In this document: in pieces, positions 15,654 to 31,922 of the stretch
Position numbering within the stretch: position 1 is the first letter of the stretch
How the letters are laid out: every line of letters begins with the position of its first letter
DNA from: Lachnospiraceae bacterium
GTDB lineage: Bacteria > Bacillota > Clostridia > Lachnospirales > Lachnospiraceae
DNA length: 64,000 nucleotides
Reading direction: 5' to 3'
Assembly (NCBI GenBank): GCA_017500935.1
Contig: JAFVXW010000085.1
Location: 124,001 to 188,000 of the forward strand
Position numbers and translations under genes: made by a program
Notes under the pieces: model-generated
What the model saw: only the letters and a program-made list of their open reading frames with translations
Database searches by the model: none
What the model was told of the DNA's origin: nothing

Positions 15654-15660
15654 CACTAAT

Positions 15661-16419: not shown

Positions 16420-16426
16420 TTACCAT

Positions 16427-16453
16427 CCCCCGGCCGCCGCCGGGGGATTTTCA
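16427..16453 (+). terminator. Terminator after pnuC
   Basis: An 8-bp GC stem CCCCCGGC / GCCGGGGG with a four-base loop, followed by ATTTTC. Confidence 0.85.
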
Positions 16454-16464
16454 TGTAATGGGTG

Positions 16465-16500
16465 TATTTATTTGACTAATCTGCGCTGTCATGGTATCTT
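16465..16500 (+). promoter_or_regulatory. Promoter of membrane LuxR-type gene (shared element, copy 2)
   Basis: TTGACT (16472-16477), 17-base spacer, TATCTT (16495-16500), with the 13-base identity TATTTATTTGACT to copy 1 at 14729 and similar TGCGC...ATG spacer elements. Confidence 0.7.
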
Positions 16501-16539
16501 ATAAGTCCAGATTACTTTCTTACCGGAGATTTTCATCAT

Positions 16540-17664: not shown

Positions 17665-17676
17665 GCAGATCCTTTT
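17644..17676. terminator. Bidirectional terminator overlapping the LuxR stop codon
   Basis: A 12-bp stem AAAAGGATCTGC / GCAGATCCTTTT (17646-17657 / 17665-17676). The 5' arm encodes the last codons of the LuxR-type protein and the 3' arm starts right after its TAA. It can also end the minus-strand eight-gene operon, whose last stop is at 17717. Confidence 0.85.
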
Positions 17677-17716
17677 CATATTTGCGGCAAACATTGCCAT
17701 ACAGCAGTTACACTGC

Positions 17717-19453
17717 TTATTCAATTGCCCCGATCCGGACCGGCATTCCATCCTCTCCTGCACAATACCAGCTGCATGGAATCACCAGACTTTCATTTTC
17801 AAATTCCGGTTCTCCGTCATACATAAGTATTTTCTCCGGATTCAGGTTCCTTTTTTTGTGGAATGCATACGGAATCTGTCCCACAGTCTCAATTCCCTGC
17901 TCCGTGATTCTGTAAACCTTTACTGCAAAAGATATGTCTCCGGTCGGAACTTCCAGATAGATATAATACGCTCTATCCCTGCTGATCAGACGGCATTTGG
18001 GCTGATAGCCATAAAAATTCTCCGTATAAGTATTTCCGTTTACAGATACCGTCCATTCAATGTCTTCTGCATTCTCACAAGATCTTATCCAGTTCATATG
18101 AAAACTTCCAATATTTTCAAACCGGTAGACAGCACCGTACTCCAGATCCATGATCCAGTTTCCCGATGTGTTTTGATACTCCGGCTTTATAAGATCAGGA
18201 TATTGTGCATAAGGCAGCATAATATGCAGTCCACCTCTGTAACCGGCCAGCCATCGGTTCGCTGCAAAAAAATGAATGCCTTCATGTCCCAGCGCAAAAC
18301 AGAGGCTGACTTCTTCCTCTCTGACCGCTTCTTCTATCAGTTCATTCATGTTTTCATAAAACCCGATTTCCGGATATGCTTCCTGAAAGCTTTTTGCCAA
18401 CAACTCAGGCAATCTCTCTTTACTGCTGAAAATGTCATCATAGCCCAGCATTCTTCCGGTTTTCACATCATAATTGTGTGTTTCCCAAAATTCCTGCTCT
18501 TCCAGCCACCATTCATACCAGAAAATATGCTCATAAAAAGACAGTACTTTTTCATCACTGCGGGTCACACAGGCGTTTGTATAAGAATACAGTTCCTGCA
18601 CCTTTTCTTCGTCTGCTGTAAGCTGCTTTGCAGCGCTGCGCAGTGTATTATGAAGCTTTGACTCCTGATTCATGCGCACTGTGGTGTTATAGTCATCAAG
18701 TATCCCCTGCAAGGTCTCATATTCTTCCGGCAGATTTTCACCATCATCGGGAGAGCCCAGTGAAATCTCCGGATAAGTCACTGTCAGAAAACAGCCTTCC
18801 ACATTTTCCATCAGACTTTTTTCTTCTATCGTAACATCCAGAAATTCCGGTTCCCAATCCTCCTGCAATACTTCCTCCTGCTTAACAGACTCCGTATTTT
18901 CCCATTGTTTCCGGAACAATTCTTCTATCGCTTCCATTGCTGCAAGAGAAAGAAAGCCGTCTTCATTATCATATGCAGAAATAGTTTCTCCCGATGCATA
19001 GACCACGTCCAATTCCGCTCCGTACATATCAGGCAACCCCTTTACTTCCACATAATGACCGTTATTTTCTGCCAGGCTGTATTCTTTGACAATGGTCTGT
19101 AAGTGTTGCATAAAAGCTGCATCCGCCAAAAATTCTTCCTGTATCTCATCTCCATACCGGGACAGCATTCGATATTTTCCGGTCACCTGATCTTTACTTA
19201 AAACCGCCGAAAAACGATAGGAACCACACTCCAGCCCGGTATCCGTTTCTTCAAAAGGAACCGTAGAAAAAAAGCATTCAAAAGAAACCATTTCATCAGA
19301 AGTAATTGTTTTAGAAGCTTCATAATCGGTATTATCCCTGCGGTAACCATCTTCTTCTGCATCTTCTGTCTTTGGTGTACTGTGTTGTGTACATCCTGCC
19401 AATACCGCCATTATCAACAGCAGTAAGATACTGACCCAAACCATCTTTTTCAT
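17717..19453 (-). CDS. Lipoprotein with RsiV/DUF3298-like C-terminal region
   Basis: A 578-residue exported lipoprotein (VLAGC lipobox, Cys21) and last gene of the eight-gene operon. After an acidic linker and a 100-residue first domain comes a segment (about 290-420) with NYDVKTGRMLGYDDIF, LPELLAKSFQEAYP and EGIHFFAANRWLAGYRGG. The same pattern appears twice in the 895-residue lipoprotein of this operon, and it resembles the DUF3298 domain of the anti-sigma factor RsiV, whose extracellular part binds lysozyme. A beta-rich tail closes it. No transmembrane anti-sigma part is present, so it is not RsiV itself. A role in sensing or blocking an envelope-active ligand is inferred; nothing is known directly. 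Confidence 0.75.
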   Translation of the reverse strand: MKKMVWVSILLLLIMAVLAGCTQHSTPKTEDAEEDGYRRDNTDYEASKTITSDEMVSFECFFSTVPFEETDTGLECGSYRFSAVLSKDQVTGKYRMLSRYGDEIQEEFLADAAFMQHLQTIVKEYSLAENNGHYVEVKGLPDMYGAELDVVYASGETISAYDNEDGFLSLAAMEAIEELFRKQWENTESVKQEEVLQEDWEPEFLDVTIEEKSLMENVEGCFLTVTYPEISLGSPDDGENLPEEYETLQGILDDYNTTVRMNQESKLHNTLRSAAKQLTADEEKVQELYSYTNACVTRSDEKVLSFYEHIFWYEWWLEEQEFWETHNYDVKTGRMLGYDDIFSSKERLPELLAKSFQEAYPEIGFYENMNELIEEAVREEEVSLCFALGHEGIHFFAANRWLAGYRGGLHIMLPYAQYPDLIKPEYQNTSGNWIMDLEYGAVYRFENIGSFHMNWIRSCENAEDIEWTVSVNGNTYTENFYGYQPKCRLISRDRAYYIYLEVPTGDISFAVKVYRITEQGIETVGQIPYAFHKKRNLNPEKILMYDGEPEFENESLVIPCSWYCAGEDGMPVRIGAIE

Positions 19454-19490
19454 CCGGCCTTTCCCTTCTCCGATCTTTTACTTTTTTCCC

Positions 19491-20057
19491 CTACGCCCAA
19501 GGATCCGCAGCCTTGGGCACACGGATATCAACCAGCAAAAACTGGTCCCAGAGAAACCACTTGCCGTCGCCTCTTCGGCGAAGCACAATCTCGCGGGCAT
19601 TATCGGCACCGCCGCTGTTTACAAAAAGCTTTTTGTAACCTTCATTGGCATCGGAATAAGGCCCTGTGTAAAAGGTGACCGTAAAAGGCTCCTCCGGAGT
19701 ATAGTTATTATCAGGTACTGCCCCCTTAAAATAAGAGAACGGCACATAGGTCTTGTTATCCCTGAAACGGTCATTTAAAAAGGATATCTCATGATTGCTG
19801 AGCGGTCTGGGACCTCTCAGCCAGTTTAACATCTCTGTGCCGATCTGCTTGTCTGCTGCATAGGCACACAGCGCACACAATGCCAGTGCTGCTGTCTGGA
19901 AAGGAGTCTCCAGTGCAGCCTCCGGAAGTGCCTGCATCTGTGCAAGACTTTCAGGAAGAGCCTGAAAGGTAAAAGTTTCCCGCTGGCTGCCCAATGACTG
20001 CACCGCTTTGCCTGCTGCAGAAACTGCATTTTTCTTTAACTTATCAAAAATACTCAT
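19491..20057 (-). CDS. Uncharacterised cytoplasmic protein sharing a domain with the TPM lipoprotein
   Basis: A 188-residue protein without signal peptide. Residues 35-188 align closely with the last 170 residues of the lipoprotein at 24556: paired features are WLRGPRPLSNHE against VLRGPQPMSDTE, YVPFSYFKGAVPDNNY against YLPRAYFEGAEPENEY, GGADNAREIVLRRRGDG against KGADNPRRIVMRKKGDN, and the identical end AxDPW. The domain may be one of the Pfam DUFs of clostridia, but I do not assign a number. The second ATG (20057) is chosen: GGAGG is 7 bases upstream of it and only 1 base from the first. One cytoplasmic and one exported copy in the same operon is unusual. Confidence 0.75.
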   Translation of the reverse strand: MSIFDKLKKNAVSAAGKAVQSLGSQRETFTFQALPESLAQMQALPEAALETPFQTAALALCALCAYAADKQIGTEMLNWLRGPRPLSNHEISFLNDRFRDNKTYVPFSYFKGAVPDNNYTPEEPFTVTFYTGPYSDANEGYKKLFVNSGGADNAREIVLRRRGDGKWFLWDQFLLVDIRVPKAADPWA

Positions 20058-20072
20058 GTTCATTCCTCCAAC

Positions 20073-21698
20073 TCACTCAATTCCCTGCCACTGGGTAATA
20101 TTCCATGTTTCAGATCCGTCTTCATGAATATTAAAACTGATCTGAATATAATTGTCATCATCAGCAAGCCATTTGTAAATTGCGATATTTTCAAAAAGAC
20201 TATCTACGGCAAGACCATGTACTCCAAATCTGGCAGCAATCTCATCATAGGTTGTATCATAGGAAGTCTCTTTTTTGCACCAGGGCAGACACTCTTTTAA
20301 AACTGCCATAGGTACTTTACCGTCCGCACCTTCCTTATCCGCAGGATTCAGTGCTGCTGCGGTATTTCCACCGGCACCGGCATTGGCATTGGCGATGGCA
20401 TCTTCGATCACCTGTATCCCTTCTGTAAAGGAAGACAGCGGATGTTCATAACCAAGGTTCAGCAAAGAAAGGTAATAATTATCATAATAGAGAGGCATCA
20501 TATCTTTATACAGACATCCTGATGTATCTCCGTTTTTCACATCGTCCCACAACATCCCCCACGGGCGCAGATAAACATAATAGTCAAAGCTGTCATCCGG
20601 ATTTTCAGGTGATACATAATGGCCTGTAAATTCAAGCATATCCTCAAAATGGCTGACAGTAGAATCCGCCGGATCTATCACCCAGCCATCCTCACGTTCT
20701 TCCATCGTGTCGGCAGCCATTCCGTTATTCCATTTGCCTTCCGGGAAAAATACCACTCTGTCGCTGGCAAGACATCCTTTTTCTGACCATCCGGGTTCAT
20801 AGACAACTTCATAACCAATGATCAAAGGCGCATCTTTTGTGGTGCCGGTATCCCAAATTGTTACATGCCCTGTGTTGTCATTATAGACATCAATTTCTGC
20901 AAAAGTATCCCATACCAGATTCAGGTCACTGGGTTCCTTGTAGATACCAGTGCCGTTTTTGATAGCCCACCAGCCGTACCATTCCTTTTCCCACCAGTCA
21001 TAGGAGGCATCAGCCTCATCGGAATCTTCAAAAACAAATCCGCCTTCTCTTTCTTCCGGCGCAGGACGCGCTTCTCCCTGAGGCGTATAAATAACGGAAT
21101 TCAGGATTTCCTGTACTTCCTCCAGCTGATACAGCTCATATACATCGCGCCTGTTATCCCAATCCACATCCATGTGATTGCAGATACTTGCATAAACATA
21201 GACATCTTCGTATTCCAGATAATCCAGATAGATGCTGACATCAAAGCTGCTTTCAAAAAGTTGGGCTGCATAGCCTTCAAACCCGCCAAACTGCCGTTGT
21301 TCATAATGGGCTTCCTGCTTTGCATATTCCTGATTATCATCATATGTAGTGGAATCATAGGTCAGATAAATGGATATTTCATAGCCATCCTCTTTGTCTG
21401 CCAGCACACGGTAAGAATCACTGGATTCGTCCTCCACAGTGATGCCAGCCTTCTTCGGATATCCCATAGTTGCCTCCAGCATGATCCCTGCATCTTCCAT
21501 TTCAGTCTTAAGTGTGAAGGTTTCCATGCCTTTTGCAGGCTTTTGCGCCTTTTCTTCCTTGTCCGCTTTTTTTGTCTCTGTTTTTACTGTCTTTGCATCG
21601 GATGAACTGCCGCCGGGAGCCTGCGCCTCTTCCTTACCGCAGGCTGTCAAGGACAGAAGCATCACGCATACCAATATCCATGCCATTACTTTCTTCAT
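20073..21698 (-). CDS. Uncharacterised exported lipoprotein (541 aa)
   Basis: Signal peptide ending LTACG (lipobox, cysteine near residue 20), then a charged Lys/Glu/Ala linker (to about residue 58), then two globular parts. The first (about 60-210) is rich in acidic and tyrosine residues (YDSTTYDDNQEY; YLDYLEYEDVYVY). The second (about 225-450) contains WWEKEWYGWWAIKNGTG and beta-strand-rich sequence ending in YYDNYYLSLL. The last 75 residues form a small separate domain. No catalytic motif is recognised. The start is placed at the second ATG because GGAG lies 8 bases before it. It sits 47 bases downstream of the DUF4428 gene in the eight-gene operon. Confidence 0.7.
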   Translation of the reverse strand: MKKVMAWILVCVMLLSLTACGKEEAQAPGGSSSDAKTVKTETKKADKEEKAQKPAKGMETFTLKTEMEDAGIMLEATMGYPKKAGITVEDESSDSYRVLADKEDGYEISIYLTYDSTTYDDNQEYAKQEAHYEQRQFGGFEGYAAQLFESSFDVSIYLDYLEYEDVYVYASICNHMDVDWDNRRDVYELYQLEEVQEILNSVIYTPQGEARPAPEEREGGFVFEDSDEADASYDWWEKEWYGWWAIKNGTGIYKEPSDLNLVWDTFAEIDVYNDNTGHVTIWDTGTTKDAPLIIGYEVVYEPGWSEKGCLASDRVVFFPEGKWNNGMAADTMEEREDGWVIDPADSTVSHFEDMLEFTGHYVSPENPDDSFDYYVYLRPWGMLWDDVKNGDTSGCLYKDMMPLYYDNYYLSLLNLGYEHPLSSFTEGIQVIEDAIANANAGAGGNTAAALNPADKEGADGKVPMAVLKECLPWCKKETSYDTTYDEIAARFGVHGLAVDSLFENIAIYKWLADDDNYIQISFNIHEDGSETWNITQWQGIE

Positions 21699-21745
21699 GC
21701 CCATCTCTCCATTTCTGTTTCTGGATTTTGATCTCCGAACTGATA

Positions 21746-22609
21746 TTACTGAATTTTAGCCTCCGCTTCGTTGGCACGTCTTGTGTAAACAGCCAGACCG
21801 TTAGTCTGTGCATCATCTATCTTGTTCATGCCTTCTTTTAACTGGGCAATTTTTTCTTCTGTCAGGGATTCTTCCCCATTCTTTGCGGTCTTGACTGCTG
21901 TCACAAGCATACTTCCCATTGCTTTATAAGCCTCCCCCTGGCGTTTCTGCGCAGTGGTAGGTCCAAAGGAAAGCAGTCCCTTTTTATTATCATTTACACC
22001 GAAAATATGATCAAAATGGAACACAATATTATCCGCGTAATCAGGCTTATCTGTCTTTTTGCTCAGGCAGATCTTCATTTCATCCACAATATACGGATGC
22101 GGCATAGTGCCGGGCTTTAACTCGCTGGTTGTATCCATTTTACTGAGCATTTTGATCTTCACGCCGTATTCCTTAAATTCCTTGGGTTTTCCGGCTTCTG
22201 CAGGCTGCGTTTCTTCCAGATATTTTTCCCAGGATGCCACCTGGTCATAGCGGAACAGTTCCACCAGCTGATCCTTGTTTTCATGTCTGTCAAAGATCCG
22301 GAACATACCGCACTCATCATAAAATGCAATTGCCTGCTGATCAAACGCAGACGGAACGGTGTATACTTTGGTTTCGCTCACCACCTCTTTATACAGTCTG
22401 TCCTGACGTTTCATGTATTCAATATGCCCGGCCAGTTCTTCTTTGGTAAATCTGCTGACACGGATATATTTGGAGCAATTATACTTACATTTGTTGCAGA
22501 TAAATGCATCGTTTTTAATCTTATTGCGGCTCATCATGCCTACCTGCTCTCCGCAGAAATCACAGTTTTTCTTTCCAAAAATGTTCTTAAAAAAATCTCC
22601 CAGTCCCAT
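21746..22609 (-). CDS. DUF4428-type zinc-binding cytoplasmic protein
   Basis: A 287-residue protein. The N-terminus (NCDFCGEQVG..., then ICNKCKYNCSKY) is a four-cysteine zinc-binding module as in DUF4428 proteins. The middle (about 75-215) is a beta-rich domain with YDECGMFRIFDRHENKDQLVELFRY, and the C-terminus (about 215-287) is helical and charged. No signal peptide is present. AAGGAG lies 7 bases before the ATG. It lies in the middle of the envelope operon, with zinc-ribbon and TPM-domain genes just upstream. DUF4428 proteins have no established role; regulation or assembly of the exported partners is a guess. Confidence 0.75.
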   Translation of the reverse strand: MGLGDFFKNIFGKKNCDFCGEQVGMMSRNKIKNDAFICNKCKYNCSKYIRVSRFTKEELAGHIEYMKRQDRLYKEVVSETKVYTVPSAFDQQAIAFYDECGMFRIFDRHENKDQLVELFRYDQVASWEKYLEETQPAEAGKPKEFKEYGVKIKMLSKMDTTSELKPGTMPHPYIVDEMKICLSKKTDKPDYADNIVFHFDHIFGVNDNKKGLLSFGPTTAQKRQGEAYKAMGSMLVTAVKTAKNGEESLTEEKIAQLKEGMNKIDDAQTNGLAVYTRRANEAEAKIQ

Positions 22610-22666
22610 ACTTTTTCTCCTTTTGTGTTATTTTTTATATGTATTCCTTTTGAGATTCCTATCGGC

Positions 22667-23449
22667 TTAAAAACTGCCGCCCCTGCCTCCGTGTGTTCTT
22701 CCGGAAGAAGATGTATGTGTATCGGAATCTGACTTTGCCTTTTGTGTTTTTGTTACGGAACTATATAAAAAGACATCCCTGGATTGTCTGATATCCAGAC
22801 TTCCTTCTTTCACATAATCAGCAGCATATTCCTGCTTCACGGCAGTTTTCATTTTACTGAGTTTTTTCTTTGTCATACCGGCAGCTATGGTACACGGTGC
22901 AAATACAACTGCAGAAAGTATGATCACAATCATTGGTTTTGACCGCTGTTTTTCGTTGTAAGGATTACCGTTCTGCGCCATTTCAAGCAGCTCTTCTGCC
23001 CGCTGGGCATATGTCAGAAATGCATTGTAATAATCATCCTCTTCCAGATACGGCAGAATTTCCTTTTCCAGATAAGCAAGACCATTACTGTTGAAAGCCG
23101 TCAGACCATATCCGTGAGTGGTAAAATGATATTCTCTGGTATCTTCACAGATATACAAAAGCAGACCGTCCGCATTGGCTGTATTTCCGTATCCGCCATA
23201 GTCAAAAATATCATCCGCGGTACTTTGCGCATCATATCCCGACATTTCTTCTTCAGTGTAAATTGCCACGTCAAAATCATAGGTTTTTCTGATTTTTTCC
23301 AGTTTCTCCGCAATAACGTCTGATTCCTGAACCGTCAGATATCCCACACCGTCTGCTACCGATGTGTTTTTAAAAGCTGCACTGACAGGGAGAACTGTTG
23401 TAATACACAACAGACAGATTACCAAAAATGAGATTATCTTCTTCATCAT
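22667..23449 (-). CDS. TPM-domain (YgcG-like) exported membrane protein
   Basis: Signal peptide (1-26, ending VSAA), then a TPM domain (about 30-160; VAIYTEEEMSG, ADGLLLYICEDTREYHFTTHGYG), one membrane helix (about 172-195, IVIILSAVVFAPCTIAAG) and a cytoplasmic tail ending GGRGGSF. The low-complexity Gly/Ser end is typical of YgcG/TPM proteins, which occur in photosystem assembly factors and bacterial envelope proteins of unknown function. AGGAGG precedes two consecutive ATGs (23449 and 23446) and either could start. It overlaps neither neighbour (9-base gap to the zinc-ribbon gene) and is part of the eight-gene operon. Confidence 0.8.
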   Translation of the reverse strand: MMKKIISFLVICLLCITTVLPVSAAFKNTSVADGVGYLTVQESDVIAEKLEKIRKTYDFDVAIYTEEEMSGYDAQSTADDIFDYGGYGNTANADGLLLYICEDTREYHFTTHGYGLTAFNSNGLAYLEKEILPYLEEDDYYNAFLTYAQRAEELLEMAQNGNPYNEKQRSKPMIVIILSAVVFAPCTIAAGMTKKKLSKMKTAVKQEYAADYVKEGSLDIRQSRDVFLYSSVTKTQKAKSDSDTHTSSSGRTHGGRGGSF

Positions 23450-23458
23450 CCCCACCTC

Positions 23459-24544
23459 CTAAAAAAGCAGCAAATAAGCGATCAATGCCGCTATTGCATA
23501 ACCGATCGCAGCTGTTTTCATAAAATATTTACGTTGTTTTTGTTTATCAACCGGATATTCACCCACCACTTTACCGGTCTGGCCGTTAATGGCAAAATGA
23601 TAATTCTGATCCATATAACGGATATTTAACATCCACACCGGCAGCAGTGCATAACGGATCTTACCGTTGGAAAAACGGATGCTGGTATGATCCGGCATCA
23701 CACTGGCATAACCGCCTGTAGTGTCCGAAAACACCTGTATCGCCGATTTTTTTACGCGTTCATTAGCTCTCTCTATACTTTCTTCTGCCTTCACATCATA
23801 TTTGTCTGCCAGATATCCCGATAAATAAACGCCTGAAAATGTGACTGCATCTTCATATTGATACGGCTCCAATGCTTCCATGTAAGCATCATCTGCTTTT
23901 TTCGAGCCATCCACCGGAATATTGCCAAATCCCACCTTGCCGCTTCTAAACAGCTTATAATGATCGATTTTGGTATAATCATAATTGGCATCACTCCAGG
24001 ACGTGGATTTCTGCGCATCATATGTTATGGAAGCATCACAGTCACAGTCAAACATCCAGAACGGAACATAGATACCTGCCATCTCCTCGATCTTCTTTTT
24101 TTCCTGAAAAGCATCCGGCAAAAACGGTGCATTCTTCGCAGCATTCTCAAATGCTTCCATCGCAGCCTTTTTGTCAATCTTAAACGGTATGATGTAATCG
24201 GGTTTCAGACTTCCTTCAAACTGCTCCTTGACAATAGCTGCATTGCCGCAATAAGGACATACCGTAGATCCCAGTGTGTCATCTCCTGTAATTTCTGCGC
24301 CGCAGGAAGGACAGGTATAATCTGCCAGCTCCACTTCACCGGTATCCTCATAACTGCGCGGTTCATAACTGTCCCAGTCATATTTGGATATCTGTCCGGA
24401 CTGCGACTGCATATCTCCCATTTCCTCCATCGTTGACAACGGAATCGTTGTCCCGCAGGACTCACAGGCAAGCTCCTGACTTTCCGGGTCAAATATCAGC
24501 GGCGCACCGCAGCATAAACATTTATAATCCTGAATATTCTCCAT
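23459..24544 (-). CDS. Double zinc-ribbon membrane-anchored protein
   Basis: A 361-residue protein with two four-cysteine ribbons: CLCCGAPL...CESCG (residues 9-30) and CPSCGAE...CPYCG (about 78-100). A central 200-residue domain includes PFWMFDCDCDASITYDAQKS and a repeat-like beta region, and one C-terminal helix (KTAAIGYAIAALIAYLLLF) anchors it. Databases often mislabel such proteins as PriA or TFIIB-like on the ribbons alone; the tail anchor argues for a membrane role with ribbons in the cytoplasm. AAGGAG is 7 bases before the ATG and overlaps the upstream gene's end. Zinc-ribbon plus TPM gene pairs recur in Firmicutes; the function is not established. Confidence 0.78.
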   Translation of the reverse strand: MENIQDYKCLCCGAPLIFDPESQELACESCGTTIPLSTMEEMGDMQSQSGQISKYDWDSYEPRSYEDTGEVELADYTCPSCGAEITGDDTLGSTVCPYCGNAAIVKEQFEGSLKPDYIIPFKIDKKAAMEAFENAAKNAPFLPDAFQEKKKIEEMAGIYVPFWMFDCDCDASITYDAQKSTSWSDANYDYTKIDHYKLFRSGKVGFGNIPVDGSKKADDAYMEALEPYQYEDAVTFSGVYLSGYLADKYDVKAEESIERANERVKKSAIQVFSDTTGGYASVMPDHTSIRFSNGKIRYALLPVWMLNIRYMDQNYHFAINGQTGKVVGEYPVDKQKQRKYFMKTAAIGYAIAALIAYLLLF

Positions 24545-24555
24545 AAATTTACTCC

Positions 24556-25863
24556 TTATAACCAGGGATCTTCCGATGCCGGAAGCCTTATCCCCAAAAG
24601 CGCTCCATTATATTCCCAAAGATAACAGTTATCCCCTTTTTTTCTCATCACAATCCTGCGGGGATTATCGGCACCTTTTGTTCTCACGCTGACATAGGCA
24701 TATCCATCCGGAGGCGCTGCAGGGTCATCATAGATCACGATCGTCCACGGCATGTCAGGTTCATATTCATTTTCCGGCTCTGCCCCCTCAAAATAGGCAC
24801 GGGGCAAATAGAGTTTGTCGCTGAAGCGCTCCTCCATGAATGCTTTTTCTGTATCACTCATGGGCTGCGGTCCGCGCAGCACATCGATCATAGCATAACA
24901 ATCCTGCGCAGATTCCGGATACCGCACCAGAGCTGCATGGAAAAGCGCACATACCAGCCTTGCATCTTCCATTCCATAAAAATCTGTCAGACTCTGCATC
25001 TGCTGTGCATCTTTGGGAAGCTCATAAAAGGTAACTAAAATCCCATCCTCTCTTTCCTCGATCATCAGCGGTTTTCCCTGTATCACCGGATTCCAGATTG
25101 TTGACACGACACCGCCTGCCATTACAAATTCTTCCAGCCCCTTTGCCATATCCAAAGCGGCCCCCGCCAGCATCTTACGATCCTCTTCCAGGCTCTGTCC
25201 CCAGACTTCTTGTGTCAGCCAGGTCTCGGAATCCCGGCAGATATTCCAGCTTCCGTTCTGCGTCAGCTCCCAGCTGTCTCCGCCGGCATAAGGACAAAAA
25301 TCATCCAGCATAAATCCATTCTCATCTTCATGTACCAGAATGGTAAGAGATACGCCGTGTCGGCCTTCTGTACAGCCATATCCTTTTTCTTCATACAAAC
25401 TTTCCGCAGCTTCCCTTATATCCAGAGCACTGCCCAGATCCGTGATCACATCAATCCGCATATCGATACCATAAGAATCAATAATTCTGTGAAAGTTTTC
25501 CGATGCGATTTTTTCCAGTTCCGCCGATTTTAGCTGACCTGTTTCATCGGTGATATACAGATCCGTGAATACCGTATCCTCTGTCGGCTGCAAGGGTTCC
25601 TCCAGTTCCACAATCTCTTCTGCTTCCACGTTTTCTTCTGTTTCTTCAGCAGTCTCTTTAAGCTCAGCAGTCTCTTTAAGCTCTGCAGTTTCCTTAAGCG
25701 CAGCAGTTTCTTCTGCCGCAGGTATCTGTTTTGTTACGGGTACAAAAACCTCTTCTTTTTCTGGTATCTGTTCTTTTTGGGTACCGCATCCGGCAAAAAG
25801 TAATGCCCCCAAAATCAGCATACTGATCACGGCCGCCATCTGTCTTATATTTATTCTTTTCAT
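24556..25863 (-). CDS. Lipoprotein with TPM-like domain fused to the shared C-terminal domain
   Basis: A 435-residue exported lipoprotein (LLFAGC lipobox). After the signal comes an acidic stalk containing three six-residue repeats of the LKETAE type (18-base DNA repeats, about 25660-25705). A TPM-like domain follows (about 95-250; SYGIDMRIDVITDLGS, HGVSLTILVHEDENGFML), then a C-terminal domain (about 265-435) homologous to the protein at 19491, again ending EDPW. The start is set at 25863 (MKRINIRQ), where a normal signal peptide begins and GGGGTGA is 7 bases upstream; an ATG at 25881 is an alternative that would overlap the previous gene by a few codons. Function unknown. Confidence 0.75.
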   Translation of the reverse strand: MKRINIRQMAAVISMLILGALLFAGCGTQKEQIPEKEEVFVPVTKQIPAAEETAALKETAELKETAELKETAEETEENVEAEEIVELEEPLQPTEDTVFTDLYITDETGQLKSAELEKIASENFHRIIDSYGIDMRIDVITDLGSALDIREAAESLYEEKGYGCTEGRHGVSLTILVHEDENGFMLDDFCPYAGGDSWELTQNGSWNICRDSETWLTQEVWGQSLEEDRKMLAGAALDMAKGLEEFVMAGGVVSTIWNPVIQGKPLMIEEREDGILVTFYELPKDAQQMQSLTDFYGMEDARLVCALFHAALVRYPESAQDCYAMIDVLRGPQPMSDTEKAFMEERFSDKLYLPRAYFEGAEPENEYEPDMPWTIVIYDDPAAPPDGYAYVSVRTKGADNPRRIVMRKKGDNCYLWEYNGALLGIRLPASEDPWL

Positions 25864-25870
25864 TCTTGCT

Positions 25871-28558
25871 TCACCCCGCATATAAAATTCCCTCAAAGCA
25901 TTCCTCCTCCGCAATACCGTTTACCGTCCAAGGCCAGCCGGTTCTGTTGGTATTAAGCTTATAGACATTTCCATCATCCGCCTGCATTTCCATATAAGTT
26001 TCCCCGTCTGTACGCAGCATGGTAAAGGTACTTCCTGCCGGAATCTCCCTCCAGACTCCTTCCACAATATCAAAGCCTTCCAGAGGAATCAAAGACACCC
26101 ATTCCGGAGAATCCACGATCCAGAAAAAGTCTGTCTGCGGTTCCGGTATGCCTGTTGCGTGATCCGTTTCATAATATCTGACTGCCTGAAGCGTTCCCAG
26201 AAGATCCATACCGGTCATCATCATAAAACGGTCCGGTGTATTGAACACTTTCGTATAACGGGTTCCGTATTCTTCCAGACCTTCCACCCACTCATTCATA
26301 AACTGAATATTATACAGATCTGCAGCACAGAAAACATCTTCCCCGTTGAGATCATAAACATTGAGCATATGATAATCATTGTCTGTCACAGAAATCACAT
26401 ACAGATAATATTTTTCTGCTCCGGGTCTTCCCACACATACCAGATAAGGTTCAAAATCATAGGCATACACGATTTCTTCCGTAAAGGTTTCATCATTGAC
26501 CGTAACTGTCATCATTTTGTAGGAACCGTACATATCGTACTCATATGCTACCGTCAGGCTGTCTTTTTGCTGACTGCCGCCTTCCAGACAAAGATCCAGC
26601 GTCTTTTCCATGGGAATTGCCATGCTGTAACCGGCTGCCGGGATACAATTATAATATTCATTGAAAAGATCCGGCATTTCCTCAAATCCTATGGAGACTG
26701 TCAGCATACCGGCTGCATAAGATGCCACCTCATAAGGCGTAAAATAGAATGTGATCCCCTGGTATCCTAATGTCCAGGAATAGGACTCACTGTCATAGAC
26801 TTCAAAATGCGGTGCAGGATCACTGTTTATTTCATCCGGGTATTTTTCCATAAGTTTGTCAGCAAGCAGTCGGGGAAGCTGCGAAGTATCGGTAAGGACA
26901 TCCTCCAGTGTAAGCGCTTCGCCGGTATGCGGGTCTAAATTAACTCCGGAAGCCCAGTAAAAAGAATGAATATCACCGCCTGCCAAAATAGCCCTGTCAT
27001 CCAATGCGCTCAAAATCCTGTCATCTGCCCTCTGCACATAATATCTGGCCTGATTAAACAAGCCTTCCGCATCATCCATATTGTCCGGGATATCTGCCCT
27101 GGAATTGAGCAGATATTCCATATCCTCCTGTGCATATACGGCAGCATCCATCCGCATTTGATCCAATTTCTGCGCCAGACCGCTGTATTTTAACGCATCT
27201 TCTTCCCCCAGCTTAAAGCTCTGCCAGGAAACATAACAAACCCGGTTCTCTTCGTCCCACTCCTCAAGTTCATGTGTGGCAATACTGATCTCAAACGGAA
27301 CTGCATAAGGAAACACCATTTTCGTCTGTTCAGGCTCCGGCATACTACCGGTTACCAGTCTCTGATACAGACAGTTTTCAGGATCATAAAACATCTCATC
27401 TTCTTCATCCAGTTTAATGATCTGTCCGTCTTTTAACCAGAAATGCTGCAGAGACATGAGAGGGTTTTGCGCTTCGTCCTGTGCACAGAACAGATAAAGA
27501 TACTCAAATCCGTCTGCATCTGTCACATAATAAGGATAAATGCCGTAAGAATAATATTCTTCCTCTTCCAGACTGTCATTTGCGGTATATATGCCCACAC
27601 TGCTGTACCAGAGCTCTTCCTCCAGATAGTGACCGGATACAATCCATTCTTCTCCATCCTCAAAATAAGACGTATGCAAAGGCATCGCCGTGTAATAACT
27701 TTCGGGTACGGTCATATATTCTGATGCAAACAGTTCAGGATGTTCTGCAAAAGTTAAAGTTGCCATCTGATTTCCCAGACCTGCCGGTGCAATATCTCCC
27801 GGATTAAACCAGAATGTCACACCGTTATAATCCAGCGTCCAGTTCAGATCCTCTTCAGACCGTTGTGCAAAATAATCCTCCAGTGCGCTGTCATTGCTAA
27901 AATCACCTGTCCACATCTGGCTGGTCAGTTCTTCTTCCACCAGTTCCGGCACTTTTTCCATGTCAGCAATTACATCATGGATGTCAAGTTCCCTGCCGGT
28001 TTTTGTGTCATAATTGGTACCGTGAAACGCCCTGAACCGATACATCTGCGGAATGCTGGTCAATGAATCTGTCAAAACTGAAAATACATTGCTGTCAGCA
28101 CGGCGCACGTACTGCTGTGCTTCTGAAACATAGGTCTCAACTTCATCCGGGTTTTCTTCCCTGGCAGAACTGACAAAATTGTCAAATTCCTCTTCCAGTG
28201 CTTTTTTCTGCATTCCGGCAGTCTGTTCCAGAACTTCGGCCAGTTCCGGGTATTTAGCAGCAGACTCCTGTTCCAATGTCACCCAGCTGTTTTTTCCTCT
28301 TACCAGCAATACCGCAGCCTGCTCATCCCACTCATAACGGGTGGTGCTTTCCTTTTTCACCTGCAGAAGTTCTGTCTGAGAGGGTATTTTCTCCTGCCTC
28401 TCTACAGAATTTTCTTCTGCTTTGTCTGCTGTTTTCTGCTCTATGGGCATTGTCTTTTCAACCGCAGGCAATACCGCATCGATCTGTTCTTTTTCTTTGC
28501 AGGAGCATAAAGTGATCACCATACAGACTGCCCAAAATACTGTACAGATTTTTTTCAT
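25871..28558 (-). CDS. Large lipoprotein with two tandem RsiV/DUF3298-like halves
   Basis: An 895-residue lipoprotein (signal peptide with TLCSC lipobox), first gene of the eight-gene operon. It contains an internal duplication. The half at about 70-330 and the half at about 420-680 both carry a helical YV(R/Q)RAD...L(T/D)DS/R segment. Each then has a (Y/L)D..TG..L...DV segment, a LP.L...L stretch and a beta hairpin (WTLDYNGVTFWFNPGDIAPA against WTLGYQGITFYFTPYEVASY). The second beta segment is close to the DUF3298 domain of RsiV, known to bind lysozyme. A beta-rich C-terminal third follows. The start at 28558 follows GGGGAGG by 8 bases; the longer open frame to 28687 runs into the divergent promoter region. 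Confidence 0.78.
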   Translation of the reverse strand: MKKICTVFWAVCMVITLCSCKEKEQIDAVLPAVEKTMPIEQKTADKAEENSVERQEKIPSQTELLQVKKESTTRYEWDEQAAVLLVRGKNSWVTLEQESAAKYPELAEVLEQTAGMQKKALEEEFDNFVSSAREENPDEVETYVSEAQQYVRRADSNVFSVLTDSLTSIPQMYRFRAFHGTNYDTKTGRELDIHDVIADMEKVPELVEEELTSQMWTGDFSNDSALEDYFAQRSEEDLNWTLDYNGVTFWFNPGDIAPAGLGNQMATLTFAEHPELFASEYMTVPESYYTAMPLHTSYFEDGEEWIVSGHYLEEELWYSSVGIYTANDSLEEEEYYSYGIYPYYVTDADGFEYLYLFCAQDEAQNPLMSLQHFWLKDGQIIKLDEEDEMFYDPENCLYQRLVTGSMPEPEQTKMVFPYAVPFEISIATHELEEWDEENRVCYVSWQSFKLGEEDALKYSGLAQKLDQMRMDAAVYAQEDMEYLLNSRADIPDNMDDAEGLFNQARYYVQRADDRILSALDDRAILAGGDIHSFYWASGVNLDPHTGEALTLEDVLTDTSQLPRLLADKLMEKYPDEINSDPAPHFEVYDSESYSWTLGYQGITFYFTPYEVASYAAGMLTVSIGFEEMPDLFNEYYNCIPAAGYSMAIPMEKTLDLCLEGGSQQKDSLTVAYEYDMYGSYKMMTVTVNDETFTEEIVYAYDFEPYLVCVGRPGAEKYYLYVISVTDNDYHMLNVYDLNGEDVFCAADLYNIQFMNEWVEGLEEYGTRYTKVFNTPDRFMMMTGMDLLGTLQAVRYYETDHATGIPEPQTDFFWIVDSPEWVSLIPLEGFDIVEGVWREIPAGSTFTMLRTDGETYMEMQADDGNVYKLNTNRTGWPWTVNGIAEEECFEGILYAG

Positions 28559-28592
28559 ATCTGTTTCCTCCCCATACCTGGATTTCTGATTC

Positions 28593-28621
28593 TTGTTTAA
28601 ATCCCGATTCCATGGTATAAT
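28593..28621 (+). promoter_or_regulatory. Promoter of the solute-binding-protein/LuxR operon
   Basis: TTGTTT (28593-28598), 17-base spacer, TATAAT (28616-28621). Transcription from about 28628 gives a leader of roughly 255 bases before the start codon at 28884, which holds the structures listed next. Confidence 0.7.
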
Positions 28622-28631
28622 GCTCTCATTT

Positions 28632-28709
28632 AACAGGGGCGGTCTCTGCGTTTCGTTGGCGCGTCGGCAGAGCGCAATACCGGACAACCGGTATTAAAGG
28701 TACCCCTGT
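28632..28709 (+). ncRNA. Structured 5' leader element (three-way-junction-like), unknown class
   Basis: Three stems nest as a three-way junction. A closing stem ACAGGGG (28633-28639) pairs with CCCCTGT (28703-28709). Inside it lie CTCTGC (28644-28649) with GCAGAG (28667-28672), and AATACCGG (28676-28683) with CCGGTATT (28688-28695) over an ACAA loop. It lies just after the predicted transcription start. No T-run follows, and it does not match any riboswitch consensus I know. Confidence 0.5.
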
Positions 28710-28790
28710 CATTTTTCAATGACATCTGCAAACATATACCTTTCTTTGATTCCTGCAATTATAATTATAAATTGATCCTCCTGTTTTTCC

Positions 28791-28859
28791 CCCACCCATG
28801 CCCTGTAAAAGGGTGGGAAGCCCCACTTTTTATCCGGAAAGGGTGGTAAACAGGGTGGG
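28791..28859 (+). promoter_or_regulatory. Competing CCCACCC/GGGTGGG hairpins before the solute-binding-protein gene
   Basis: CCCACCC (28791-28797) can pair with GGGTGGG at 28811-28817 or at 28853-28859. A second C-tract (28821-28826) can pair with GGGTGG at 28841-28846. Mutually exclusive pairing this close to the start codon (28884) suggests a translational or stability control element. Confidence 0.45.
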
Positions 28860-28883
28860 AACTTCAATGAAGGGATGCCATCT

Positions 28884-30254
28884 ATGAAAAAAAACATATT
28901 ACTTCTGATTCTGCTTCTATTGTCTCTGTCTTTCTGCGGATGTTCCGCCAAGACAATGCCTGATACTACAGATCCGGTCACTCTGACCATGTGGCATGTA
29001 TATGGAAGTCAGACGCAGTCACCGCTCAATCTGCTGATCGATGACTTTAATCATACTGTCGGAAAAGAAAACGGTGTTATCATCAATGTGGTTTCTGTGA
29101 CAAGTTCTTCTGCGATCGACCAGGCACTTGCTGCATCCGCCAATCATGAACCCGGTGCCCAGGACCTTCCCGATCTTTTTACCGCCTATCCGCGCGTCGC
29201 TGAGATTGTGGGACGAAACAAGCTTCTTGACTGGCAGGAATATTTCTCCCAACAGGAGCTTGCCGTTTTTACCCCGGAATTTCTCAGGGAAGGGTATTTT
29301 AACGACAGGCTGTTAATGTTGCCGATTGCCAAATCCACAGAAGCTTTTTTCGTCAACCAGACACTGTTTGACCGTTTCAGTGCCCAGACCGATATCACCA
29401 AAGACTGTCTGACAACTTTTCAGGATATTTTTGATACCGCCTGCGCTTATTACGACTGGAGCGGCGGACAGTATTTTATGCAGCTGAATGATTATTATCA
29501 CTATGCTTATGCCGGTATGAAGGCAAAGGGCTTTGAATTCATTGAAAATGAACAGCTGCAGGTTCATCAAAAAGCCTTTGAACAGATCTGGAATCCGTTG
29601 GCCAAAGCGGCGATCTACGGCGGTATCTGTCTGGAAGACGGGTATGCCGCATCCCGCTGGAAAACCATGGAGATCGTTGCCAACACCGGTTCCACTGCAG
29701 ATATCCTCTATCAGCCCGAGGAAATGATCTATCCGGACAACTCCACGGAACCCATCACTGTACTGACCCTGCCCTATCCTGCTTTTGATCACGGAAACTG
29801 CTGCGCTGTCCACCGTGGCGGCGGTTTGTTTGCCATAAAAAGCGACGATGAAAGAAAAAACAACGCTGCCGCTATTTTTGCCGGCTGGATCACCCAAAAA
29901 GAACAAAATCTGGATTTTGTCACGCAGGCCGGCTATCTTCCGGTAACGGATGAAGCCTTTGATCTTCTCTTTGAAACCAGGGAAACGCTTCCTCTTTCCC
30001 GGCAGAATCTCTATGAGGCAGTGGATTTTATGCGCAAAGAATATCAGTTATGTGCTCTTCCACTGTACAAGGGTGCCTCTGATGTACAGGCCAAATTTGA
30101 ATCCAATGTCAAAGAGACCTTAAAATCAGCTCACAATCAATATCTGATGCGTATCCGGGCAGGTGAAAATCCCGAAAATGTACTGCATGAATTGATTGCT
30201 TCTTCTCTGGAAACCTTAAGATCCTATTATGAACAGGAAACAGACAGCAAATGA
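28884..30254 (+). CDS. Extracellular solute-binding lipoprotein coupled to a LuxR regulator
   Basis: A 456-residue family-1 type substrate-binding lipoprotein (signal peptide ending FCGC). It shows the usual opening strand TLTMWHVYG, then SPLNLLIDDFN, DLPDLFTAYPR, an MLPIAKSTEAFFVNQTLF hinge region and later ERKNNAAAIFAGWIT and GYLPVTDEAFD. Such proteins normally deliver sugars to ABC permeases, but none is adjacent: the next gene is a membrane-bound regulator whose ATG overlaps this stop codon (ATGA). The ATG at 28884 is chosen for the AAGGGA 8 bases upstream; the one at 28875 abuts that site. The context argues for a ligand-sensing rather than transport role. Confidence 0.85.
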   Translation: MKKNILLLILLLLSLSFCGCSAKTMPDTTDPVTLTMWHVYGSQTQSPLNLLIDDFNHTVGKENGVIINVVSVTSSSAIDQALAASANHEPGAQDLPDLFTAYPRVAEIVGRNKLLDWQEYFSQQELAVFTPEFLREGYFNDRLLMLPIAKSTEAFFVNQTLFDRFSAQTDITKDCLTTFQDIFDTACAYYDWSGGQYFMQLNDYYHYAYAGMKAKGFEFIENEQLQVHQKAFEQIWNPLAKAAIYGGICLEDGYAASRWKTMEIVANTGSTADILYQPEEMIYPDNSTEPITVLTLPYPAFDHGNCCAVHRGGGLFAIKSDDERKNNAAAIFAGWITQKEQNLDFVTQAGYLPVTDEAFDLLFETRETLPLSRQNLYEAVDFMRKEYQLCALPLYKGASDVQAKFESNVKETLKSAHNQYLMRIRAGENPENVLHELIASSLETLRSYYEQETDSK

Positions 30255-31915
30255 AAATAAAAGTTCCATCACATCTTCCTATAAAAAGCCTGCTTCAGCA
30301 GCTTGGTCCGGAAAATCTGTCCATGCGCAGACGACTGTTTCTCTATATTTTTTCTGCACTGTGCATGCTTTTTGCCCTGCTGCTTATGCTGTTCAATCTT
30401 TTTGGCATCTTAAACCCCATGCGCAAAAGTCTTCTGGATTCCATGGAATCCCAGCTGCTTGGCAGCGTTGCTTCGATCGAACACAGCTATGACAAGACTG
30501 CTGCTCATGCCATTTCCTTTGCGTCCCAGCTGGAACAGCAGATTCAGGATTACCTGACAGAAACAAATCTGACTTTTGATGACCTGCGGGATAATACCGA
30601 AGCCATCACAGCCCTCCAGACCCGGCTGTATAACACGGTTTACTTAAACATGCAGCTGGCCCCTTCCAGCGGTGCCTTTTACCTGCTAAACACCACCGTC
30701 AACAGTAACGTCCAAACGCCCCGGTACAATGGCATTTACTTAAAATACATCAATCTGTATTCCGAAAATACGGTCAATAACGACTTTTCCCTCTACAGAG
30801 GTTCCGTTGTAACAGGAAAAACAAACGGCATAACCTTCCACAGCGGATGGCAGAATGAAATGAAAACAGATTTTTTCACCACCTGTAATGCCACCTTCGA
30901 AAAAGGGGTATATTACGCTTTAAGTTCTGCTGTGCAGATTCCGGATACCTGGGAACGGGCGCGTTATCTGTATGTACCGCTGCATAATCTTAAAGGTGAG
31001 ATCATTGGTGTCTGCGGATACGAACTCAATGACCTGTACTTCCAGCTGACCCATTCTGTTGCTGATTCCCAGCCGGAGCATCTGATCTATGCCCTTTTGG
31101 ACAGTCATAATGAAGAATACACCGGTCAGTTCAGTTCCAGCATATACAGTATGTCCGGACCGGTTCAGCATTCTCTGAAACTCACCCCTCAAAAAGAGCT
31201 GACTTTATTTACTTTTGATGCTGATACATATGTTGGTCAAACCCGTACCATACAGCTTGGCAGCCGGGAATTTACCGTTGCTGTCATGATCACGCAGGCG
31301 TATTACGAAAACCATGTCCGGAAAGGTCAGCTGAATGCAGCAGTCGTGATTTTGATCGTTGCGCTGTTTTCCTTTGCCTACTGTGCTTTTATCACAAAAA
31401 AATATGTAACACCGATCCTTCAGAAAATCGAACTGATCAAATCCAGCGAAGAATACGGTGAGCAGATTAATATCCGAGAAATCGATGACCTGTTTGCCTA
31501 TCTGGAAGAAAAAGACACACAATATGAAGAGAAACTTCGCAAACTGGAACGGGCCAGACAGGATGCCGAGACAGAAACAAAGAAAGCCAGAGCTGCTTAC
31601 GAAAGCGCGATTGAAAAATACAATCTGGCGCACAGTCAGCTGCAGCATCTGGCCGCCGAACAGAAAAAAGAAATTGTTCTGGAAGAATATGAATATTTTG
31701 TCGCCAATTTAAAAACCCTTACCCCCACAGAATACAGAATTTACCAGCTGTATCTGGATGGCAAGGGCGGTCCGCAGATCGCGGCACTTCTGGACATTTC
31801 AGAAAACACTCTGAAATACCACAATAAGAATATATACAGTAAACTCGGAATTTCCTCCCGCAAACAGCTTCTTAGGTATGCTGCCTTAAAACAGCTGCAG
31901 GATGAAAAAAAATGA
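30251..31915 (+). CDS. Membrane-bound LuxR-type regulator with extracellular sensor domain
   Basis: A 554-residue protein. A short cytoplasmic N-terminus is followed by one membrane helix (29-53), a 300-residue extracellular domain in the position and style of a Cache sensor (60-355), and a second helix (361-382). Next come a coiled coil (about 415-475) and a LuxR-type helix-turn-helix (488-545) with ISENTLKYHNKNIYSKLG. The layout mirrors a chemoreceptor or kinase with the output replaced by a DNA-binding domain. Its start overlaps the solute-binding-protein stop by four bases, so the two are translationally coupled and probably form one receptor. The target is unknown; the divergent envelope operon and its own promoter are candidates. 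Confidence 0.85.
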   Translation: MKIKVPSHLPIKSLLQQLGPENLSMRRRLFLYIFSALCMLFALLLMLFNLFGILNPMRKSLLDSMESQLLGSVASIEHSYDKTAAHAISFASQLEQQIQDYLTETNLTFDDLRDNTEAITALQTRLYNTVYLNMQLAPSSGAFYLLNTTVNSNVQTPRYNGIYLKYINLYSENTVNNDFSLYRGSVVTGKTNGITFHSGWQNEMKTDFFTTCNATFEKGVYYALSSAVQIPDTWERARYLYVPLHNLKGEIIGVCGYELNDLYFQLTHSVADSQPEHLIYALLDSHNEEYTGQFSSSIYSMSGPVQHSLKLTPQKELTLFTFDADTYVGQTRTIQLGSREFTVAVMITQAYYENHVRKGQLNAAVVILIVALFSFAYCAFITKKYVTPILQKIELIKSSEEYGEQINIREIDDLFAYLEEKDTQYEEKLRKLERARQDAETETKKARAAYESAIEKYNLAHSQLQHLAAEQKKEIVLEEYEYFVANLKTLTPTEYRIYQLYLDGKGGPQIAALLDISENTLKYHNKNIYSKLGISSRKQLLRYAALKQLQDEKK

Positions 31916-31922
31916 AACCGGT

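What the first reader, a model, noticed from the sequence alone, without database searches (positions are those of the whole stretch)
17717..28558. Uncharacterised eight-gene envelope operon with RsiV-like lipoproteins, TPM proteins and zinc-binding partners
Eight minus-strand genes with gaps of 7-57 bases encode four lipoproteins, a TPM-domain membrane protein, a double zinc-ribbon tail-anchored protein, a DUF4428 protein and one small cytoplasmic protein. Seen: lipoboxes, cysteine motifs, tandem duplications, one bidirectional terminator. Known: the DUF3298 domain of RsiV binds lysozyme; TPM and DUF4428 have no settled role. Inferred: an envelope sensing/defence system, perhaps against host lysozyme or another muralytic protein, with exported binders and a cytoplasmic zinc-dependent arm.
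Basis: partly seen in the sequence, partly recalled or inferred. Interest (0 to 1): 0.8.

Follow-up and report, generated by a model that had tools for sequence, protein, structure and literature searches.

The report
PspA-less envelope-stress operon with new partners
This eight-gene cluster of a gut bacterium is built on two membrane proteins of a kind that in Bacillus subtilis anchors the membrane-repair protein PspA, but here PspA is missing and surface lipoproteins and an unstudied protein family stand beside them, so it probably monitors or maintains the cell envelope in a way not yet tested.

Summary
The operon is real: eight minus-strand genes, gaps 7-57 bases. Its core pair C-D is a YdjG-YdjH pair (double zinc-ribbon tail-anchored protein plus TPM membrane protein), which in B. 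subtilis anchors PspA and the SPFH protein YdjI; relatives carry that order, PspA-C-D-SPFH. The window's pair falls in a lineage that mostly has SPFH upstream and no PspA. Around 80 loci found with DUF6935 alone, SPFH, DUF4428, C, D and DUF6935 all occur together in 18; 32 show none of the others. No PspA was found in this genome. Here SPFH is absent from the operon and four lipoproteins are present. A (twin DUF3298) and H (by predicted fold) have the RsiV fold but lack RsiV's lysozyme-contact loop, and the genome has a SigV-RsiV-like pair elsewhere: the envelope idea is good, the lysozyme idea weak. A divergent solute-binding-protein/membrane-LuxR pair is a candidate regulator (upstream of DUF6935 clusters in 11 of 80 loci, but apart from DUF6935 in 5 family genomes that have both). 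The full eight-gene order was found only here. Function is inferred; no paper on DUF6935 was found (one search). New variant of a known kind.

The parts
25871..28558 (-). A: 895-aa lipoprotein with two DUF3298 (RsiV-fold) modules
   Evidence: PF11738 E 7.6e-18, two stretches; lipobox seen in sequence
24556..25863 (-). B: lipoprotein, TPM-like region (about 105-250) fused to an exported DUF6935 domain
   Evidence: PF22043 E 1.2e-37; TPM 17.5 bits, below cut-off; in L114 one open frame matches both B 105-251 and D 90-241
23459..24544 (-). C: YdjG-type protein, two zinc ribbons and C-terminal TM
   Evidence: PF08271; 33% over 345 aa, E 1e-71, to the zinc-ribbon protein of a PspA-C-TPM-SPFH operon
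22667..23449 (-). D: YdjH-type protein: signal peptide, TPM domain, TM, tail ending GGRGGSF
   Evidence: PF04536 E 1.2e-21; 2kw7 E 5.9e-6; TPM protein of a PspA operon E 5e-10
21746..22609 (-). E: cytoplasmic protein with N-terminal DUF4428-type zinc finger
   Evidence: PF14471 25.3 bits, below cut-off; 41% to the Faecalibacterium homologues in SPFH-E-C-D-G operons
20073..21704 (-). F: lipoprotein with a tryptophan-rich central domain, no family
   Evidence: no Pfam match at E 1; relatives in 11 of 80 DUF6935 loci, 64% over residues 243-543 to L074
19491..20063 (-). G: DUF6935 protein without signal peptide, with a loose N-terminal amphipathic helix
   Evidence: PF22043 E 3.1e-57; model pLDDT 88; hydrophobic moment
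17717..19453 (-). H: lipoprotein, small N-terminal domain plus an RsiV-fold module (201-578)
   Evidence: fold match to DUF3298 structures and RsiV; two separate genes in L075
17648..17674 (.). bidirectional terminator-like stem after H
   Evidence: sequence; not listed by the scan
28875..30254 (+). divergent solute-binding lipoprotein (SBP), candidate sensor
   Evidence: PF13416 E 8.4e-17; upstream of G on the other strand in 11 of 80 loci
30251..31915 (+). R2: membrane protein with C-terminal LuxR HTH, candidate regulator
   Evidence: GerE E 2.5e-13; beside the SBP in 9 of 80 loci
28790..28861 (.). dyad CCCCACCC-13-GGGTGGGA and three direct copies of AAGGGTGGGAA type, candidate operator
   Evidence: same kind of element and spacing in L085

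Best explanation
A PspA-independent relative of the Bacillus PspA-YdjGHI envelope-stress system. SHOWN by sequence comparison: C and D are a YdjG-YdjH pair; the pair falls in a lineage that mostly has SPFH upstream and no PspA, often within an SPFH-DUF4428-C-D-DUF6935 operon; in the window SPFH is absent from the operon and four lipoproteins (two with RsiV-fold modules, one a TPM-like/DUF6935 fusion) are present; a solute-binding-protein/membrane-LuxR pair with repeats in its promoter lies divergently upstream. INFERRED: D (TPM outside, tail inside) and tail-anchored C form a membrane platform. E and G are cytoplasmic partners that dock on it, G perhaps also by an N-terminal amphipathic helix that binds membrane. 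A, B, F and H form the outer face and bind a wall- or envelope-derived ligand or D's TPM domain. The SBP-LuxR pair senses an external ligand and switches the operon. The output is maintenance or repair of the membrane and of wall-synthesis sites, as reported for YdjGH.
For: C to a PspA-operon zinc-ribbon protein E 1e-71, in a relative with the order PspA-ZnR-TPM-SPFH. Of 80 C hits in 98 genomes, 8 have PspA upstream and SPFH downstream, 31 SPFH upstream without PspA; the window's C lies in a 27-row clade (support 100/99), mostly of the second kind. No PspA in the own genome. Around 80 DUF6935 loci, C in 36, D in 34, E in 32, full SPFH in 27, all four in 18; D directly before G in 21. YdjG/YdjH loss in B. 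subtilis delocalises PspA and YdjI and deforms cells under alkali stress (PMC8581546, passages). SBP/LuxR upstream of G on the other strand in 11 of 80 loci.
Against: 32 of the 80 DUF6935 loci show none of the partners, so DUF6935 also works elsewhere. 38 of 80 C hits have neither PspA nor SPFH within 5 kb. The place of the window's C inside its clade is weak (83/71), and 5 of 29 SPFH-upstream rows fall outside the clade. Congeners lack DUF6935 (0 of 12) and live without this operon. The SBP-LuxR pair is in none of the 28 loci L016-L023 and L054-L073, eight of which hold DUF6935, and in 5 other family genomes with both the SBP and DUF6935 they lie apart. Amphipathic helices also occur in soluble proteins. 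No expression, interaction or phenotype data. B. subtilis YdjG and YdjH themselves were not compared.
Confidence: 0.58

Rival explanations
1. Lysozyme (or other muralytic enzyme) sensing and neutralising system: the RsiV-fold lipoproteins bind and inhibit lysozyme at the surface.
For: DUF3298 in A, RsiV fold in H; RsiV binds and inhibits lysozyme (PMC5014341, passages).
Against: The contact loop is not kept in A or H; no NCBIfam RsiV match; a SigV-like factor and RsiV-like protein exist elsewhere in the genome, both under the curated cut-offs; lipoproteins have no cytoplasmic anti-sigma part. Other surfaces of the fold could still bind a muralytic enzyme.
Confidence: 0.12
2. Assembly factor for secreted or membrane complexes: TPM, zinc-ribbon and DUF6935 proteins act as chaperones for exported proteins rather than in stress.
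For: TPM and band-7 domains are proposed to assist assembly of membrane-linked complexes (PMC11237479, section 19; PMC12419801, passages). Large exported or surface proteins neighbour G in L074, L089, L096, L108 and L112.
Against: No single conserved client gene; the reported YdjGH phenotype is one of envelope stress. The two readings can both be true.
Confidence: 0.2
3. Anti-phage or inter-bacterial conflict system.
For: DUF4428 occurs at the N-terminus of some SNIPE anti-phage nucleases (PMC13190303, passages).
Against: 0 of 8 proteins match PADLOC at E 0.01; no nuclease or toxin domain in the Pfam results.
Confidence: 0.04
4. A loose collection: genes that only share a promoter, with no joint function.
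For: The full order was found only here; F has one match better than 1e-30 among 396 other family genomes.
Against: E, F, H and B-like parts recur beside DUF6935 on its strand (32, 11, 9 and 8 of 80 loci); L074 keeps E-TPM-like-F-G-H.
Confidence: 0.06

Closest known systems
Bacillus subtilis pspA-ydjGHI system
   Same: A YdjG-type (double zinc ribbon, TM) and YdjH-type (TPM, TM, low-complexity tail) pair in that order; SPFH protein in most related operons of the window's lineage.
   Different: No PspA in operon or genome, no SPFH in the operon; DUF4428, DUF6935 and four lipoproteins instead; flanked by LuxR-type regulators rather than a known sigma-W promoter.
RsiV, lysozyme receptor and anti-sigma factor
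   Same: DUF3298 / RsiV fold in A (two modules) and H.
   Different: Lipoproteins without an anti-sigma domain; lysozyme-contact loop not kept.
SNIPE anti-phage nuclease homologues
   Same: DUF4428 at the N-terminus, as in some SNIPE homologues without TM (PMC13190303, passages).
   Different: E shows no nuclease domain in Pfam.

Membership tests
PspA-YdjGHI (Bacillus-type Psp) system | YdjG-type protein: two zinc ribbons, conserved domain, C-terminal TM | tested here: met
   through a homologue in a PspA operon; B. subtilis YdjG itself was not at hand
PspA-YdjGHI (Bacillus-type Psp) system | YdjH-type TPM membrane protein directly downstream of YdjG | tested here: met
PspA-YdjGHI (Bacillus-type Psp) system | PspA in the operon (or genome) | tested here: not met
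   no PF04012 match in G000, held at 95% completeness
PspA-YdjGHI (Bacillus-type Psp) system | SPFH protein YdjI in the operon | tested here: not met
   one PF13421 match in the genome, at C74:93616, beside another C copy about 30 kb before the window
PspA-YdjGHI (Bacillus-type Psp) system | role in envelope stress, interaction of the pair | not testable with these tools
   needs experiment
RsiV lysozyme receptor | DUF3298 / RsiV fold | tested here: met
   A: PF11738 7.6e-18; H: 5jen 1.4e-6 from a modest model
RsiV lysozyme receptor | cytoplasmic anti-sigma part and neighbouring SigV | tested here: not met
   A and H begin with lipoprotein signal peptides and match no RsiV model; the neighbours 16540-17664, 28875-30254 and 30251-31915 are LuxR-type or SBP
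RsiV lysozyme receptor | lysozyme-contact loop YEIAPGY (RsiV 255-261; the numbering is my inference from the residues listed in PMC5014341) | tested here: not met
   PGDIAPAG, PYEVASYA, NRWLAGYR; own RsiV-like protein keeps it
Known anti-phage systems (PADLOC) | match to a system protein | tested here: not met
   0 of 8 proteins at E 0.01

The most novel reading that the evidence does not exclude
In Clostridia without PspA, the YdjG-YdjH membrane platform works with a different peripheral effector, the DUF6935 protein, which docks by an amphipathic helix. Exported DUF6935 (on a TPM-like lipoprotein here, on an S-layer protein in L074) and RsiV-fold lipoproteins read envelope damage outside, and a solute-binding-protein/membrane-LuxR pair switches the operon: an envelope-stress response whose parts beyond YdjGH are unstudied.
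Probability: 0.28. Interest if true: 0.72.

Novelty: new variant of a known kind. Interest (0 to 1): 0.5.

Why it matters
TPM/YdjH and YdjG are known mainly as helpers of PspA. A clostridial lineage that keeps them, mostly with SPFH and without PspA beside it, shows that the platform has a life of its own, and names likely partners (DUF4428, DUF6935, RsiV-fold lipoproteins). That makes the open question of what TPM/YdjGH does by itself testable in cultured gut bacteria: Faecalibacterium (L122, L124, L127), Anaeromassilibacillus (L105, L111) and Massiliimalia (L088) records carry the five-gene operon.

Tried and rejected
Lysozyme receptor: not first choice, because the contact loop is missing and a SigV-RsiV-like pair exists elsewhere. 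Defence system: no PADLOC match. Phage origin: only weak PHROG matches, largely to zinc-ribbon or signal-peptide stretches. RNA element: no Rfam match in 15000-32000 at gathering scores. Foreign island by composition: G+C of the operon (0.44-0.46) is like its surroundings. Empty site in the genus: proteins 15661-16419 and 30251-31915 have no full-length match in the 12 congeners, so none could be read. DUF6935 fold: no match at E 0.001 (best 0.54), none by sequence (best 1.6). E against PDB sequences: zinc-ribbon-like or chance matches, best 0.0068. F in the family: besides its own genome one match better than 1e-30 among 396 and two more better than 1e-8; most weak ones cover the signal peptide. 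Count of the AAGGGTGGGAA element: three in the window with up to one mismatch, but 25 of 100 shuffles reach three, so only their clustering is notable. Literature on a membrane LuxR with a solute-binding partner: three unrelated papers. Not found in print by these searches only: DUF6935, DUF4428 with a role in such an operon, SPFH/TPM/zinc-ribbon operons without PspA (open-licence library only).

Full report
WHAT IS THERE. Eight genes, here A to H in order of transcription, lie on the minus strand between 28558 and 17717 with gaps of 7-57 bases. The genome is held as G000 (95% complete); the window is C74:124001-188000. One genome of its family, G029, has a C protein identical to that of L119, a record placed in Lachnospiraceae, so the host is taken as Lachnospiraceae. 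Pfam gives two DUF3298 stretches in A (E 7.6e-18), DUF6935 in B (1.2e-37) and G (3.1e-57), TPM in D (1.2e-21), a TFIIB-type zinc ribbon in C (3.1e-7), DUF4428 below cut-off in E (1.3e-5), nothing in F and nothing credible in H. A and H are related (E 4e-11); B's end and G are 40% identical.

THE CORE IS A YDJG-YDJH PAIR. In B. subtilis the operon encodes PspA, YdjG (two zinc ribbons, a YpeB/NTF2-like domain, TM), YdjH (TPM domain, membrane, low-complexity or coiled-coil part) and a band-7 (SPFH) protein with a C-terminal zinc ribbon (PMC11237479, section 19 read in full). YdjG and YdjH are needed for PspA and YdjI foci, interact with each other, and their loss deforms cells under alkali stress (PMC8581546, passages). 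The B. subtilis proteins were not at hand, so the link was tested through relatives. Locus L174 of a genome of the same family holds PspA (PF04012, 4.7e-36), a zinc-ribbon protein, a TPM protein (3.6e-16) and an SPFH-zinc-ribbon protein (1.8e-47) in that order. The window's C matches that zinc-ribbon protein over 345 residues at 33% identity, E 1e-71. D matches the TPM protein of another such operon (L177) at E 5e-10.

TWO LINEAGES. C has homologues in 59 of 98 genomes, own included. Of 80 hits classed by neighbours within 5 kb, 8 have PspA upstream and SPFH downstream, 31 have SPFH upstream and no PspA, 3 have SPFH downstream without PspA, 38 have neither. A tree of 44 C proteins puts the window's C in a clade of 27 (support 100/99) with 24 rows labelled SPFH-upstream and 2 with neither; the two PspA-linked rows used (of 8 known) fall outside, but so do 5 other SPFH-upstream rows, among them this genome's second C copy on a very long branch. 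The window's own place inside the clade is weakly supported (83/71). PspA is over cut-off in 33 of the 98 genomes, in 22 of them together with C, and was not found in the own genome. The genome's one SPFH gene of this type stands beside the second C copy, about 30 kb before the window.

DUF6935 IS THE TELLING PARTNER. A scan of one genome each of 84,980 species with four DUF6935 proteins gave 428 relatives, of which the best 80 were kept. Around these, chosen by G alone, tblastn finds C in 36, D in 34, E in 32, a full SPFH in 27, F in 11, H in 9 (in 7 of them only part of its N-terminal 183 residues) and the TPM-like part of B in 8; 18 loci have SPFH, E, C, D and G together, 48 have at least one partner, 32 none. 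Many contigs are cut short. C and D are on G's strand in all but one locus each. D is directly followed by G in 21 loci and C by D in 26 (gap under 1.2 kb). L074 (goat caecum) keeps E, the TPM-like part, F, G and H in order, with G 85% identical; L075 keeps F-G-H. In L074 a surface (SLH) protein with DUF6935 stands between F and G and the TPM-like part of B is a separate lipoprotein; in the window a TPM-like region and an exported DUF6935 are fused in B. That this region is a TPM relative rests on a match below cut-off, BLAST to D at E 0.010 and on L114, where one open frame matches both B 105-251 and D 90-241. In L075 the two halves of H are separate genes. Such fusions suggest, but do not prove, contact. 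PF22043 is in 8 of 98 genomes, and of the 13 of the genus only in the own one; a wider sample has it in 40 of 299 of the family. So the operon is accessory in its genus.

G ITSELF. The DUF6935 model is good (pLDDT 88, 54 sequences): an alpha/beta core and a helix 5-23 of low confidence. That segment is amphipathic: mean z of the hydrophobic moment 1.76 over 81 proteins, against -0.22 for one random internal stretch of each. No solved structure matches with confidence (best E 0.54; cystatin/NTF2-like entries recur among the weak hits). DUF6935 is in no paper of the 5.39 million searched.

THE LIPOPROTEINS. A profile of H, A and two relatives finds the DUF3298 structures 3s5t (2.1e-7) and 3cyg (0.0011) by sequence. 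A modest model of H 201-578 (pLDDT 66, five sequences) matches 3cyg 1.8e-8, 3s5t 2.7e-7, 4e72 9.8e-7 and RsiV-lysozyme 5jen 1.4e-6. RsiV contacts lysozyme with Y255, E256, G260, Y261 and others; S169, P259 and Y261 matter for binding (PMC5014341, passages). This genome has a SigV-like factor (NCBIfam 7.3e-50) followed by an RsiV-like protein (3.9e-52), both under the curated cut-offs, and that protein keeps YEIAPGY, which I read as RsiV 255-261. The modules of A and H read PGDIAPAG, PYEVASYA and NRWLAGYR. Lysozyme is therefore not the likely ligand, though other surfaces of the fold could bind it.

A CANDIDATE SWITCH. Divergent from the operon stand a solute-binding lipoprotein (28875-30254) and a protein with a LuxR HTH and hydrophobic segments (30251-31915). 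The SBP occurs upstream of G and on the opposite strand in 11 of 80 DUF6935 loci, with the LuxR protein in 9; among the 52 loci with at least 8 kb upstream it is 10 and 9. Bases up- and downstream of G were equal, and all 11 lie upstream. The same search found neither in 28 loci of relatives, but 8 of those 28 hold DUF6935 themselves, so this is only in part a control. L085 is closest (65% and 54% identity). Its promoter carries three AAGGGTGGG-type copies spaced 31 and 12 bases, the window's 30 and 12. A dyad like CCCCACCC-13-GGGTGGGA is the best one in the promoters of the window, L085, L108 and L112 (shuffles as good: 5, 2, 2 and 2 of 60); in L074 and L096 a like element is visible by eye (in L074 with matched changes on both arms) but another dyad scored better; L081 has a different one, L082, L090, L111 and L118 show nothing better than chance or another element, and L083 was not scored. 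Against a strict link: 43 of 299 family genomes have the SBP at E 1e-30, and in the 5 others that also have DUF6935 the two are on different contigs (4) or 21 kb apart. The pair is a plausible, unproven regulator.

MECHANISM PROPOSED. Shown: the parts, their order, their families. Inferred: D and C make a membrane platform; E and G dock inside; A, B, F and H work outside; the SBP-LuxR pair switches expression; the outcome is envelope maintenance as for YdjGH. DUF4428 was reported as an N-terminal domain of some SNIPE homologues that lack a TM segment, as are PH domains, which can bring such proteins to membranes (PMC13190303, passages); this fits E at a membrane platform. Others hold that TPM is unlikely to be a phosphatase and may help assemble membrane-linked complexes (PMC12419801, passages).

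VERDICT. Not a member of the PspA-YdjGHI system in the strict sense (PspA and SPFH tested, not met), but built on its anchor pair: a new variant of a known kind with several unstudied partners.

Noticed in passing
window 28790-28861; L074, L085, L096, L108, L112 upstream of the SBP gene: A G/C-rich dyad and direct repeats in the promoter of the SBP-LuxR pair; in L074 both arms have changed in a matched way, as for an operator that follows its protein.
   Followed up: partly
window 16540-17664; L078:8217-9182: A second membrane LuxR protein (HisKA_7TM plus GerE) converges on the operon; a 45% full-length relative stands divergent to a lone DUF6935 gene in L078. Its HTH is 47% identical to that of 30251-31915.
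   Followed up: partly
L012:284-1746 (G000:C63): A SigV-like sigma factor followed by an RsiV-like protein with the YEIAPGY loop in the same genome.
   Followed up: yes
L114:2743-3423: An AIM24 protein (E 5.1e-73) inside the SPFH-E-F-C-TPM-DUF6935 cluster of Anaerotignum lactatifermentans.
   Followed up: no
L089, L096, L108, L112 upstream of the H-like gene and G: Large repetitive exported proteins (942-995 aa) with a C-terminal hydrophobic segment directly upstream of the small H-like lipoprotein and G.
   Followed up: no
L130, L139, L141-L145, L149, L153: In these Lachnospiraceae loci G has none of the partners but follows a gene of 633-654 codons that in L141 begins like a sugar-binding regulator (the likeness is by eye).
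   Followed up: no
   Followed up: no
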